56,938 bases of DNA from a virus. The notes under the pieces are model-generated. The model worked only from the letters and a program-made list of their open reading frames with translations. It had not been told where the DNA came from and searched no databases. Below are positions 20,881-28,548 of this stretch, in pieces. The stretch lies in the IMG/VR virus record IMGVR_UViG_3300022602_000115, positions 1-56,938 of that record. The stretch is one strand, 5' to 3'. The translations under genes and the position numbers were made by a program. The number at the start of each line of letters is the position of its first letter. Position 1 is the first letter of the stretch.

Positions 20881-20957
20881 TGGTGCCCCAAGAGAGACTC
20901 GAACTCTCAAAATTTGGCTTCTAAGACCAACACGTATACCAATTCCGTCATCGGGGC
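20881..20957 (-). tRNA. tRNA-Leu(TAG), short variable region
   Basis: Acceptor GCCCCGA/TTGGGGC, loop CTTAGAA, T arm GAGAG TTCGAGT CTCTC. The variable region is only about 5 nt, unlike the long arm usual in Leu tRNAs. Confidence 0.85.
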
Positions 20958-21313
20958 ATATTGATTAGAGTACTGTTGTGATTTTAAGAGCATTCGCTCA
21001 CTAAATGTGCATTTAAGATTACCTTCGGCATCAGTAATCATCTCCGTATGACTGGAATTGGACACTTAGCGATGTTCTTCCCTAACAGTTGGGATTGCCT
21101 TTTCTTTTGCATTCACTCTAATCAATAGGAACTCTCCCTAAAGAATTCCACTTGAGTCTTTTGATATTGGACGACAGTCCTCAGGTCTGAACATCCGTAA
21201 GCGAAGTCCACCATCACTCGCTTATTTTTAACGATGGGACTTGCACCCACCACGACAAAGTGAGCCACGATAAACTAGGGATGTTTACCGTAAGCCTATC
21301 GGGACTAATTTTT
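20958..21313 (-). ncRNA. ORF-free structured segment between tRNA-Met and tRNA-Leu
   Basis: About 355 bases with no credible ORF. A 13-bp perfect inverted repeat (20959-20971 and 21115-21127) closes a 170-nt domain that ends exactly before the 5' end of tRNA-Leu. Inside on the minus strand are smaller hairpins such as GATTAC...GTAATC, TAAATG-CA-CATTTA and GAGCGAATGCTC. The upstream half has GGACTGTCGTCC and a T-arm-like GTGGGTGCAAGTCCCAT. Interpreted as a structured RNA of unknown class. Confidence 0.5.
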
Positions 21314-22467: not shown

Positions 22468-22552
22468 TGGTGGAGATGGTAAGATTCGAACCTACTAGTC
22501 CTAGGAAACAGATTTACAGTCTGCCGCACCCCTCCAACTGTGCCGCATCTCC
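22468..22552 (-). tRNA. tRNA-Tyr(GTA)
   Basis: 85 nt with long variable arm, acceptor GGAGATG, loop CTGTAAA, T loop TTCGAAT, CCA encoded. Confidence 0.95.
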
Positions 22553-22989
22553 ATTGTTTTTGTTTAGTGCTATCATGCCGATTTGTCAACAATGTAGCTA
22601 GCACTGACAAGCGAATAGCAGTTATATCAGGATCCGTTCCTCGCACAGTTGGACCCGAATAGTCATAGCGTCCTATGACGATACCTTGATAACACTAAAC
22701 AAAAACAATTATGGTAGGAAAGGTCGCCCAATCCTTTCTTTACTACGAGACTTGTTTATAACCTCTACCATATTAAATTATACTGGGGTATTTAGCAACA
22801 ACTCTCACCCGAGAGATAGCCACGTAGTCGTCCTACGATTGGTCGCATTATACATTACAATCCAATAATATCCAGCGTCCTCCTGATATAATCTCAAGGT
22901 TTCGTGTAAACTTAAAGTGGTCAGGACGGCTCCTGATTAACACCAAATTAAGCTACCTACTGGTATTGGCAACCCAATACAATTTAATA
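22553..22989 (-). ncRNA. large inverted-repeat-clamped RNA between tRNA-Glu and tRNA-Tyr
   Basis: 437 bases without a convincing ORF. Repeats: 17 bp perfect (22553-22569 with 22693-22709) ending at the 5' end of tRNA-Tyr; 8 bp (22710-22717 with 22765-22772) around an inner GAAAGG/CCTTTC stem; 13 bp (22767-22779 with 22981-22993) whose 5' strand on the transcript is the ACCA end of tRNA-Glu. The last two share ACCATA (22767-22772), so they compete or switch. Class unknown; large ornate phage RNAs such as GOLLD or ROOL are known beside tRNAs. Confidence 0.6.
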
Positions 22990-23064
22990 TGGTACTGCGT
23001 ACGAGAGTCGAACTCGTCTTCTCAGGTTGAAAACCTGATGTCCTAACCGATAGACGAACGCAGT
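22990..23064 (-). tRNA. tRNA-Glu(TTC)
   Basis: Acceptor ACTGCGT/ACGCAGT, loop TTTTCAA, T loop TTCGACT, CCA encoded. Its ACCA 3' end begins a 13-bp inverted repeat completed 200 nt downstream. A GGTGGT/ACCACC hairpin (23067-23105) lies just upstream. Confidence 0.9.
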
Positions 23065-25214: not shown

Positions 25215-25290
25215 TGGGGTATTCTATGAGGATCGAACTCATACTATCTCGGTCACAGCGAGAGGTGCAGACCACTACACTAAGAACACC
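25215..25290 (-). tRNA. tRNA-His(GTG)
   Basis: Loop CTGTGAC; has the extra G at -1 opposite discriminator C73, the hallmark of histidine tRNA. CCA encoded. Confidence 0.95.
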
Positions 25291-25294
25291 ACTG

Positions 25295-25414
25295 ACCATA
25301 TAGAAACACACTCGGTGCTGATCAGGCACTTACAGGAATTGAACCTGCCACTCCGGAGTCCAGAGCTGTATCCAACAAACCAATGCGCTTGGTCTGAATG
25401 TGTTTTTATATGGT
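25295..25414 (-). repeat. clamp repeat unit 3 (inverted repeat)
   Basis: Strands 25295-25310 and 25399-25414, 16 bp with one mismatch; loop contains a T-arm-like element and TCTGG-ACT-CCGGA stem. Confidence 0.8.
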
Positions 25415-25550
25415 GTAGTAATTGGGTATCGAACCCAACTAGTCGTTTGTTTTACAAACAGGCGATATCATTTCCTGCCGCCATATGCCCCTCGGGTTTG
25501 CAATCCTGCTACGCATACGGTCAAACAACTTGTCGACCATGACTTACCAC
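25411..25550 (-). ncRNA. tRNA-like element with extra arms
   Basis: 140 nt closed by GTGGTAA/TTACTAC followed by A-CCA, with T arm TTGGG TTCGATA CCCAA. Between are five or so hairpins (TGGTC/GACCG, TATGC/GCATA, GGCG/CGCC, TGTTT/AAACG) instead of two. The TGTTT-GTAAAAC-AAACG loop could mimic an anticodon arm but gives no normal anticodon. May be an interrupted tRNA, a mimic, or a domain of the larger RNA. Confidence 0.45.
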
Positions 25551-25625
25551 CATATAGAAACACACTAGACGAGGCGACCTCGTGGCCACAAGTTCCTGCT
25601 TATCTCTAATGTGTTTTTATATGGT
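25549..25625 (-). repeat. clamp repeat unit 2 (inverted repeat)
   Basis: Strands 25549-25564 and 25610-25625, 16 bp with one mismatch; loop holds GTGGCCAC and CGAGG/CCTCG stems. Confidence 0.8.
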
Positions 25626-25698
25626 GTTGGATATGTGCATTTATCTACTGTCCAACACAATAGGTCATTTCGTAGCACATTACGCTATGATATTTACT

Positions 25699-25776
25699 AC
25701 CATATAGAAACACACTAACCTTGAAGAAGCCAGGTATAAATCTAGCAACGAATCAGCCAGTATGTTTTTATATGGT
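25699..25776 (-). repeat. clamp repeat unit 1 (inverted repeat)
   Basis: Strands 25699-25714 and 25761-25776; the 5' strand on the transcript overlaps the A-CCA of tRNA-Lys(TTT). Confidence 0.8.
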
Positions 25777-25846
25777 AGGGGCACAGAGAATCGAACTCTG
25801 ATTAATAGGTTAAAAGCCTACTACTTTGCCGTTAAGTTATACCCCC
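25773..25846 (-). tRNA. tRNA-Lys(TTT)
   Basis: Acceptor GGGGGTA/TGCCCCT, stem GTAGG/CCTAT, loop CTTTTAA, CCA encoded. Confidence 0.95.
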
Positions 25847-25926: not shown

Positions 25927-26215
25927 GTTGTCGTAATTAATTTTATTTTACGTGCCAACCCAAGACCAATACGGGATCTTGAGCGACACTAGAGTTTACC
26001 TCGCTTCATGTCATTCTCCTGTTAAATTAAAAAAAGATTGGTTGCGATGTTGAGTACCTTACTGGCCAACGCTCAAGTTCATCCAGTCGCTTCTAGGTCA
26101 TAATCTGCGAGTAATTAATTCGCTTCATATCATCACTACCAAACAGAAATGCAATGCCCCACAACCATAGCAGATCATTACCAGCGGACTGCGATTTACG
26201 CAATGCATTTCTGTT
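25927..26215 (-). ncRNA. structured spacer with 15-bp clamp after tRNA-Gln
   Basis: 289 bases, no ORF. A perfect 15-bp inverted repeat (26139-26153 with 26204-26218) whose first strand on the transcript is the CCA end of tRNA-Gln plus AACAGAAATGCA. Farther down a direct repeat GTAATTAATT occurs at about 25935 and 26111, and an A/T-rich GTTAAATTAAAAAA element at 26022. Confidence 0.5.
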
Positions 26216-26289
26216 TGGCACCCGAGATAAGAATCGAACTTATACTAACAGAGTCAAAGTCTGTTGTGCTACCACTACACCACTCGGGA
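26216..26289 (-). tRNA. tRNA-Gln(TTG)
   Basis: First tRNA of the array. Loop CTTTGAC, acceptor TCCCGAG/CTCGGGT with a U-U at 1-72, T loop TTCGATT, CCA encoded. Confidence 0.9.
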
Positions 26290-26984: not shown

Positions 26985-27013
26985 ATTATACTACATCTAT
27001 TTATAAATGTCAA
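26985..27013 (-). promoter_or_regulatory. sigma70 promoter; also contains TATAAATA
   Basis: TTGACA, 17 nt, TATAAT. The spacer contains TATAAATA, the T4 late-promoter octamer, so it might be used early and late. The -35 overlaps the stop of the halogenase gene. Confidence 0.75.
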
Positions 27014-28548
27014 GTTATTTCTGTTCTACCTTTTGTTCCATATGTTGCATAAAATGCCTTCGCCCAACCTTCTGTTGTGTAGCAGGTGTCCATCATTTTC
27101 TTTTTAAATGCTTCTTTTTCTGGAATAATTTTATTCTCATACACATAAATCGCATCTTGAGAGTTCAAATTATAAAGTCTATCTCTAATTTTATCTTTAT
27201 CGAATAGATGTAGAGCCTGTCCAACTGTCAGGAAACTGCCAGCTGAGTAAGCTGAGTAGAGATTGTATTCTCCAAGGATACCATTCCCCCACATATCAAC
27301 ATAATCTTTAACACGATCAGTCCAAGTCGAACGATCTTTTAGTTTTAACCAGTAAGAACTGTCAGTTCGTTTACCTCTGTAATGCAGATTTATAAAATCA
27401 ATCACACCTGTAGTTTGACGAAGCATCTCTTCGTTGTATAATTTCTTTTCTGCAACTCCAGTTTTATTGTATGGATCCCAGTACAAAGAAAGATTAACAA
27501 TACTATGAACAGCAACACCAAGACCATTAGACTCAAGTGGTTCTGCAAATCCAGTACTTATACCAACACCAATGACATTGTTTTTCCAAAATTCAGATGC
27601 CAAGTCTGGCTTATATGTAAACGATGCGATTGGATCAATTTTAATGTTAAATCTTTTTTCAGCTTCTTCAAGAGCCTGATCAGCAGTTATTTCTGTATTG
27701 TCGTAGATATATCCATTTCCGCTTCTATTTCGTATATTGATGTTCCAAGACCATCCATACTTCATAGCAGTTAGTTCAGTGTATGATTTATACTCAACCT
27801 CTTTACCCCACCAACCAAGAACTGATGAAGCAGGAAACTGTTGTGAGTAATCAATATATTTTACACCAAGAGCTTCTTTCAACAACAGTTTAGCAAAACC
27901 AGAACAATCAAAAAACCAATCTCCTTCAATAGAAGTGGCATCATCAAATATCAATGATAAAATATCACCAGTATCTCCATCATATGTATGTTTTACAAAT
28001 TTCTTTTCAAGTAACTTTACGCCTCGCACTAAACCAATCTTCTTAAGATAAGCAGCATTCGCTCTGCTATCGAAATGATACATTGGCATAATATACGCAT
28101 CATATCCTCTCTTGTCAGATGTAACATGAGGGATCATGTTGTTTTCTAAAAGACAATTCCAGTAATATGAATCGGATACGCTAATACCTTTGTCAAGAGT
28201 TATAAGATCATACAATTGATGTGTTATTGGAGCAGATTCTGCAATCTGTTTCTGTCTCTTATTTGTATCGATGACAGAATGTGTGAAAGTATGACCAAGA
28301 TCATACCAATCAACAAACTTTCCACCAAGTTTTGGCATTGCGTTTGTGTTGATAGCCCATTGAAACAAATCAATATCTAACTCTTCGAGCAAATTATTAA
28401 CAGCAAAAGAACCAGACTCTCCTGCAATAATTGGTGGTTTACTTGGATCTTCGACAACAGTTATATCAAGATTTTTCCATTTCTTTTTAAGAAACAAAGC
28501 CGTTAACCAACCAGCAGTTCCGCCACCAAGAATAACAATCTTTTTCAT
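27010..28548 (-). CDS. flavin-dependent tryptophan-halogenase family protein, 512 aa
   Basis: FAD loop ILGGGTAGW (6-14), GGKFVDW with K77 at the place of the catalytic Lys of PrnA (K79), WSWNI (266-270) as the WxWxIP signature with Ile but no Pro, and GFAEPLESNG (333-342) carrying the PrnA E346 equivalent. With Lys and Glu kept, chemistry may be retained, although phage family members have no proven substrate. Homologues occur in T4-like cyanophages. Coupled by overlap to dCMP deaminase and an uncharacterised partner. Confidence 0.85.
   Translation of the reverse strand: MKKIVILGGGTAGWLTALFLKKKWKNLDITVVEDPSKPPIIAGESGSFAVNNLLEELDIDLFQWAINTNAMPKLGGKFVDWYDLGHTFTHSVIDTNKRQKQIAESAPITHQLYDLITLDKGISVSDSYYWNCLLENNMIPHVTSDKRGYDAYIMPMYHFDSRANAAYLKKIGLVRGVKLLEKKFVKHTYDGDTGDILSLIFDDATSIEGDWFFDCSGFAKLLLKEALGVKYIDYSQQFPASSVLGWWGKEVEYKSYTELTAMKYGWSWNINIRNRSGNGYIYDNTEITADQALEEAEKRFNIKIDPIASFTYKPDLASEFWKNNVIGVGISTGFAEPLESNGLGVAVHSIVNLSLYWDPYNKTGVAEKKLYNEEMLRQTTGVIDFINLHYRGKRTDSSYWLKLKDRSTWTDRVKDYVDMWGNGILGEYNLYSAYSAGSFLTVGQALHLFDKDKIRDRLYNLNSQDAIYVYENKIIPEKEAFKKKMMDTCYTTEGWAKAFYATYGTKGRTEIT

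What the first reader, a model, noticed from the sequence alone, without database searches (positions are those of the whole stretch)
25291..25776. Three copies of a 16-bp RNA clamp interleaved with tRNA-like bodies
ACCATATAAAAACACA and its partner TGTGTTTCTATATGGT occur three times as inverted pairs in 480 ORF-free bases. The clamp's 5' strand starts at the CCA of tRNA-Lys, and two further CCA-ended elements (8-bp minihairpin; 140-nt tRNA-like body) lie in front of the other two copies. All strands can cross-pair, so the RNA could rearrange. I know of no described family with this plan, though GOLLD and ROOL are ornate phage RNAs near tRNAs.
Basis: seen in the sequence. Interest (0 to 1): 0.85.

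Follow-up and report, generated by a model that had tools for sequence, protein, structure and literature searches.

The report
Swappable RNA cassettes behind phage tRNAs
Behind certain transfer-RNA genes, many large viruses of bacteria carry small folded RNA modules held shut by a helix that starts at the tRNA's own CCA end; the modules are swapped between viruses like cartridges, match no known RNA family, and occur most often behind the tRNAs for lysine, glutamate and glutamine.

Summary
The three clamps (minus strand, 25776-25295) are three separate elements, and the array holds more on the same plan (26218-26139, 22992-22768, 22709-22553). Each is a folded RNA closed by a 15-23 bp helix; behind a tRNA the 5' strand begins at the encoded CCA and pairs with UGG. 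The clamp occurs in over 119 IMG/VR contigs, in 0 of 11.3 million prokaryote contigs, and matches no Rfam family. Stems and loops covary strongly on the tRNA strand. Clamps follow Lys(UUU), Glu(UUC) and Gln(UUG) tRNAs (47/83 in a set not chosen by clamps) but rarely others (15/774; p=3e-41). The enclosed loops are exchangeable cassettes: at least 145 families, most multi-member families seen in several contexts; one element (25549-25624) is 76/76 identical in four other divergent viruses with identity ending at its edges. Filled/empty and swapped sites exist between near-identical tRNAs, and cultured Salmonella/Shigella phages swap cassettes inside one constant clamp. Best reading: excisable RNA payload slots in pre-tRNA transcripts. 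Processing and payload function are inferred.

The parts
26216..26289 (-). tRNA-Gln(UUG), in front of element Q
   Evidence: ARAGORN/Rfam
26139..26218 (-). Element Q: 80-nt clamp cassette CCAAACAGAAATGC...GCATTTCTGTTTGG, starts at the CCA of tRNA-Gln
   Evidence: relatives L172/L173, there with stem CCATAAGTGAACACA
25773..25846 (-). tRNA-Lys(UUU), in front of element H3
25699..25776 (-). Element H3: clamp cassette starting at the CCA of tRNA-Lys
   Evidence: relative L121 96% over 77 nt with compensatory change in the inner hairpin
25625..25698 (-). Body X: 74 nt, ends in a 7-8 bp minihelix followed by the CCA of the next clamp
   Evidence: sequence
25549..25624 (-). Element H2: clamp cassette, 76/76 identical in L080/L190, L091, L131, L154 (there behind tRNA-Lys)
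25415..25548 (-). Body Y: 134-nt tRNA-like body with T-arm, possible 7-bp acceptor and ACCA running into the next clamp
   Evidence: sequence; no tRNA call
25295..25414 (-). Element H1: 120-nt clamp enclosing a tRNA-like domain (T-arm and anticodon-like arm)
   Evidence: weak tRNA score 18.9 bits; L085 relative 92% over 120 nt, there in tRNA-Lys context
25215..25289 (-). tRNA-His after element H1
22990..23064 (-). tRNA-Glu(UUC), in front of the type C element
22768..22992 (-). Type C element: 225-nt structured RNA whose clamp starts at the CCA of tRNA-Glu
   Evidence: 15-sequence alignment A1, covariation 0/500 shuffles
22553..22713 (-). Type B2 element: long clamp (22709-22687/22575-22553, 22 of 23 bp) whose 3' arm abuts the 5' end of tRNA-Tyr at 22552
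   Evidence: relatives L197, L209, L115 behind tRNA-Glu CCA
20957..21129 (-). Probable further element: 14-bp stem closing about 170 nt, 3' arm ends at tRNA-Leu(UAG); related RNA in L172 lies behind the CCA of tRNA-Leu

Best explanation
These are exchangeable RNA cassettes in a fixed slot of polycistronic pre-tRNA transcripts. Shown: each cassette is a folded RNA closed by a long helix; behind tRNAs the helix starts at the encoded CCA, pairs CCA with UGG, and often takes in the first bases of the next tRNA; the slot sits mainly behind Lys(UUU), Glu(UUC) and Gln(UUG); the contents are swapped between viruses and slots while the clamp is kept or re-paired; the tRNA in front keeps its identity elements and is normally the only copy. 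Inferred: the clamp lets any cassette sit between two tRNAs without spoiling either. Host tRNA-processing enzymes (RNase P at the next tRNA's 5' end, a 3' nuclease at the CCA, perhaps RNase III in the helix) cut it out, giving a mature tRNA plus a stable closed small RNA. The loop is then the payload, probably trans-acting in phage-host or phage-phage conflict, which would explain its diversity and exchange.
For: Outer stem start peaks at the CCA. Covariation of arms: 88.6% of outer pairs form versus 64.7% in shuffles (max 69.3%) with no pairing filter; outside position 8, G-U 91 versus A-C 12, so RNA of the tRNA strand. Type C: 27 of 47 pairs with two-sided changes, all five measures 0/500 shuffles; type B1: 22 of 35 pairs. 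Loops: 49 two-sided pairs versus 8.9 expected over 21 cassette families. Isoacceptor specificity: 47/83 versus 15/774, Fisher p=2.6e-41, in the set fetched by a protein; with spacers of 55-300 nt only, Lys 77/80, Glu 30/46, Gln 25/49, Met 0/36, Asp 0/37, Cys 0/35; clamped Lys is followed by 17 different tRNAs. Exchange: at least 145 families, 40 of the 51 multi-member ones in two or more contexts; element H2 identical in divergent viruses; filled L093 versus empty L059 between identical tRNAs, and type B1 versus type C in the same Glu>Lys slot. tRNA intact: A73 and 7/7 acceptor pairs in 93/93 clamped Lys tRNAs, sole copy in 92 of 94 loci. Independent cases: Cronobacter phages CR3/CR8 have a 19-bp clamp from the CCA of tRNA-Gln(UUG) into tRNA-His; related cores lie in Escherichia/Salmonella phages, and four cassettes alternate in one constant clamp in Ithacavirus phages.
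Against: No transcript, cleavage or phenotype data were available. Some clamps are not behind a recognised tRNA (105 of 298 tRNA-strand type A hits), and some lie inside larger unknown RNAs, so tRNA processing cannot be the only exit route. The conserved inner arm sequence (AAACACAYU/ARUGUGUUU) and the A-C mismatch at position 8 are unexplained by a mere spacer role. Why UUN tRNAs are preferred is not explained.
Confidence: 0.5

Rival explanations
1. The clamp is only a processing or protection signal for the UUN tRNAs: the helix hides the CCA from nucleases or is an RNase III site that sets the order of maturation. The loop has no function of its own.
For: CCA is paired in the tRNA-borne clamps, the helix overlaps both tRNA ends in many cases, and the effect is tied to the identity of the tRNA in front.
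Against: Loops are conserved between distant viruses with compensatory changes, reach 225-250 nt with intricate conserved cores, and also occur away from tRNAs. No phage RNase III in 20 contigs, though a host enzyme would do.
Confidence: 0.17
2. The elements are selfish mobile DNA or RNA inserts (MITE-like, or like intervening sequences of bacterial rRNA) that land at structured-RNA genes because excision there is harmless.
For: Sharp borders, 76/76 identity across divergent viruses, filled/empty sites, inserts inside larger RNAs, tandem copies.
Against: No Y1 transposase and no tyrosine integrase in 20 virus contigs, no target duplication seen in the pairs inspected, arms co-vary instead of being fixed terminal repeats, loops under structural selection, strong isoacceptor bias. 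Homologous exchange through conserved arms would explain the mobility without selfishness.
Confidence: 0.18
3. Decoy: the clamped Lys/Glu/Gln tRNA keeps its 3' hairpin, cannot be charged, and soaks up host anticodon nucleases that cut UUN anticodons.
For: The three preferred tRNAs are the s2U34 group, and Lys(UUU) is a well-known anticodon-nuclease target (general knowledge).
Against: Clamped tRNAs keep A73/G73 and full acceptor stems and are the only copy of their isoacceptor in nearly all loci, so the phage would lose the functional tRNA.
Confidence: 0.08
4. One reading: the three clamps form one RNA that switches between alternative pairings.
For: All arms can cross-pair.
Against: Relatives usually have a single element; H1, H2, H3 and Q each have separate relatives in other contexts.
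Confidence: 0.03

Closest known systems
Stable RNAs of unknown function in the tRNA clusters of phages T5 (RNA I, III, IV, 1, 2, 2H, 3, X) and T4 (species 1 and 2 RNAs, rnaC/rnaD)
   Same: Small structured, partly tRNA-like RNAs co-located with phage tRNAs; several T5 ones are closed by a terminal helix.
   Different: None of the T4 or T5 tRNAs tested has a CCA-anchored clamp at the threshold used; no cassette exchange or isoacceptor rule is annotated; no sequence relation was found.
GOLLD and ROOL
   Same: Ornate phage RNAs often near tRNA islands (PMC12286853).
   Different: 659 to over 800 nt nanocage RNAs; no Rfam match here; no CCA-anchored clamp or cassette exchange described there.
Intervening sequences (IVS) of bacterial rRNA
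   Same: Hairpin inserts with long stems, removable without harming the host RNA (general knowledge).
   Different: Here they sit mainly at tRNA 3' ends, cores are many unrelated covarying RNA folds, and the helix takes in the CCA.
Integron gene cassettes and attC sites
   Same: Exchangeable cargo behind conserved imperfect palindromes; works-like resemblance only.
   Different: Cargo is 30-230 nt of RNA, no integrase was found, and covariation and G-U pairs point to RNA of the tRNA strand.

Membership tests
GOLLD / ROOL / HEARO / any Rfam 15 family | Covariance-model match | tested here: not met
   Window: only tRNA above gathering score; array at E<=5 gives no credible other match; loci with other element types gave tRNA, tmRNA and one group I intron
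tRNA (bodies X, Y, loop of H1) | Cloverleaf recognised by ARAGORN or Rfam | tested here: not met
   Not called; H1 loop 18.9 bits versus cut-off 29
T4/T5-type stable array RNA | Small structured non-tRNA RNA inside a phage tRNA array | tested here: met
   but stability and expression not testable
T4/T5-type stable array RNA | Sequence or clamp kinship with the T4/T5 RNAs | tested here: not met
   No CCA-anchored clamp in T4 or T5; no BLAST relation to named phages for H2 or type C
MITE / transposon | Transposase in trans, target-site duplication, fixed terminal repeats | tested here: not met
   No Y1 transposase in 20 contigs; arms co-vary; no duplication in filled/empty pairs. Other transposase families not searched
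Integron cassette | Tyrosine integrase | tested here: not met
   0 of 20 contigs with PF00589, control genomes 14/14
rRNA-type intervening sequence | Excised by RNase III without re-ligation | not testable with these tools
   Needs RNA data; no phage RNase III in 20 contigs
Type III toxin-antitoxin RNA (ToxI-like) | Adjacent ToxN-like gene and tandem pseudoknot repeats | not tested
   Considered only as an idea for payload function

The most novel reading that the evidence does not exclude
Phages share a large pool of mobile RNA payloads (at least 145 families in this sample) that plug into a standard CCA clamp behind UUN tRNAs and a few other RNA genes; tRNA maturation releases each payload as a trans-acting small RNA used in counter-defence or phage competition. 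It would be an RNA counterpart of anti-defence gene islands.
Probability: 0.3. Interest if true: 0.95.

Novelty: categorically new. Interest (0 to 1): 0.87.

Why it matters
Phage tRNA arrays have been read as codon-supply or tRNA-replacement devices. Here they also carry a system of exchangeable structured RNAs, tied to particular isoacceptors, conserved by covariation and spread across many uncultured large phages and some cultured enterobacterial ones. It gives dozens of new RNA families at once, suggests how non-coding RNAs could be expressed from tRNA operons, and makes the old puzzle of the stable RNAs of T4 and T5 directly testable in laboratory phages.

Tried and rejected
Close named relatives of the window array: only tRNA-Pro matches; the Phage NCTB hit to H2 is chance, that genome has no tRNA. 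Loci fetched through the halogenase gene held no tRNAs. Bacterial genomes: no exact clamp. Idea that the type A element interrupts a tRNA T-loop in L050/L053/L133: on inspection it sits in a larger unknown RNA. Permuted or split tRNA reading of X and Y: acceptor halves can be matched in several ways, not decisive, no recogniser supports it. Synteny as the cause of the isoacceptor rule: rejected, clamped Lys precedes 17 different tRNAs and the rule holds at equal spacer length and after dereplication into 164 clusters. Phage RNase III and CCA transferase as processing partners: none in 20 contigs, controls positive; the T4 RNA ligase search had no positive control and says nothing. Literature searches found no description of such elements in the open library; subscription papers and preprints are not covered.

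Full report
What was checked. The window is a 56.9-kb uncultured virus fragment with an array of 29 ARAGORN tRNAs on the minus strand. The three clamps of the finding are at 25776-25699, 25624-25549 and 25414-25295. The region folds far better than shuffles (z=-6.05). The array as a whole has ten Watson-Crick stems of 14 bp or more where shuffles give none or one.

Spread. A second set of 80 loci was fetched only through a phosphoesterase gene of the array, so it is not biased towards clamps. Together the clamp- and phosphoesterase-fetched loci plus the window (200 loci) fall into 164 clusters at 90% identity. In whole contigs the inner motif pair was found in 11 of 18, the reversed control pattern once.

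The tRNA rule. Among 2772 tRNAs, hairpins that start at the encoded CCA follow Lys(UUU) 94/122, Glu(UUC) 51/117, Gln(UUG) 36/114 and Leu(UAG) 12/79; Met 1/229, and none for about 100 each of Asp, His, Cys, Phe and Trp. In the unbiased set the three UUN tRNAs have 47/83 against 15/774 for all others (p=2.6e-41). The rule survives dereplication and matching of spacer length. Clamped Lys tRNAs precede 17 different tRNAs, so the association is with the tRNA in front. The stem start peaks at the CCA and one or two bases before it, and in about a third of the cases the 3' arm overlaps the first bases of the next tRNA. Clamped tRNAs keep their identity bases and acceptor stems and are usually the only copy in the locus, so they are probably functional once freed.

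RNA, not just DNA palindromes. Arm pairs covary: with no filter on pairing of the outer eight positions, 88.6% form pairs against 64.7% in shuffles. Outside position 8 there are 91 G-U and 12 A-C cells on the tRNA strand, which is what a sense RNA would give. Position 8 is a frequent A-C mismatch and is unexplained. The large type C RNA behind tRNA-Glu has 27 of 47 pairs with two-sided changes, above all 500 shuffles on every measure, and sliding the partners destroys the signal. Type B1 has 22 of 35. Inside the type A loops, 21 families show 49 two-sided pairs against 8.9 expected.

Cassettes. 266 distinct type A-like elements fall into at least 145 loop families; 40 of the 51 multi-member families occur in two or more contexts. 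Element H2 of the window (25549-25624) is identical over 76 nt in L080/L190, L091, L131 and L154; the identity ends 1 nt left and 0-1 nt right of the element, while alignable backbones are 73-89% alike. Between identical tRNA-Lys and tRNA-His, L093 has a 67-nt spacer with the element and L059 has GTTTATG; the same Lys>Met and Glu>Lys slots hold different cassettes in different viruses, including type B1 in one and type C in another. Type A elements also occur inside a larger unknown RNA (L050, L053, L133) and in tandem. No Y1 transposase or tyrosine integrase was found in 20 contigs.

Cultured phages. Of the tRNAs in the named-phage arrays or stretches examined, one has a clamp at the threshold: tRNA-Gln(UUG) of Cronobacter phage CR3, 19 bp, reaching into tRNA-His. 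Its core domain recurs with quite different, still paired outer stems in Escherichia phage Sa179lw and Salmonella phages S5 and gmqsjt-1. In Ithacavirus phages S5, UTK0001/FSL SP-076 and B2, and in Salmonella phage As2, one constant clamp with near-identical flanks encloses four unrelated cassettes, and As2 shows a compensated change in the arm. These are the best laboratory subjects.

Interpretation. The facts that I regard as shown: folded RNA elements of the tRNA strand; anchoring at CCA; tie to UUN tRNAs; exchange of contents. The inferred mechanism: the clamp is a standard socket that allows a structured RNA to be transcribed between two tRNAs and cut out by host tRNA-processing enzymes, leaving functional tRNA and a closed small RNA; diversity and exchange suggest a role in conflict with hosts or other phages. 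A pure processing signal, a selfish insert, or a decoy tRNA are weaker rivals for the reasons given. Why UUN tRNAs are preferred, what the conserved inner arm AAACACAYU/ARUGUGUUU is for, and what any payload does remain open.

Comparison. The nearest known things are the stable RNAs of unknown function annotated in the T4 and T5 tRNA clusters and the GOLLD/ROOL RNAs found near tRNA islands (PMC12286853). The elements are not members of any Rfam 15 family tested. I found no description of CCA-anchored, exchangeable RNA cassettes in the open literature held here, but that library lacks subscription papers and preprints.

Noticed in passing
L050, L053 (about 1180-1700 +), L133: A conserved RNA of several hundred nt without Rfam match (TTTAAGGTAACGAGGACCAG...GGCTTCACCA...GCCAGGGCT...) that carries type A elements as peripheral inserts.
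   Followed up: partly
L259 860-1000, L261, L262, L263, L264: Cultured Ithacavirus-type phages swap four unrelated cassettes inside one constant clamp (GCATAGTAATGAG...CTCTTTACTATGC); some related copies overlap tRNA-Leu annotations made by automatic pipelines.
   Followed up: yes
L053 13913-14302, L124 1787-2164: Strong matches to beta_tmRNA and to permuted tmRNA at the same place in uncultured phage contigs.
   Followed up: no
L103 4094-4286 (-): Group I intron match (65.4 bits) inside a tRNA array.
   Followed up: no
window 26025-25931 (-): Stretch before tRNA-Lys(CUU) with a tiny ORF (ATGAAGCGAGGTAAACTCTAG) conserved at 82-95% in many loci; possibly a leader or another RNA.
   Followed up: no
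window 24642-24553 (-): A probable tRNA-Ser(UGA) missed by ARAGORN; Rfam scores it as tRNA-Sec below cut-off (35.9 bits).
   Followed up: no
window 21310-20957 (-): Further unassigned structured RNA between tRNA-Met and tRNA-Leu, related to L189, L202 and L172.
   Followed up: partly
window 27010-28548 (-): Phage tryptophan-halogenase-like gene (phrog_2928) next to the tRNA array.
   Followed up: no
type A arms, position 8: A conserved A-C mismatch in the middle of the clamp helix (89 of 158 distinct elements), sometimes A-U or G-C.
   Followed up: partly
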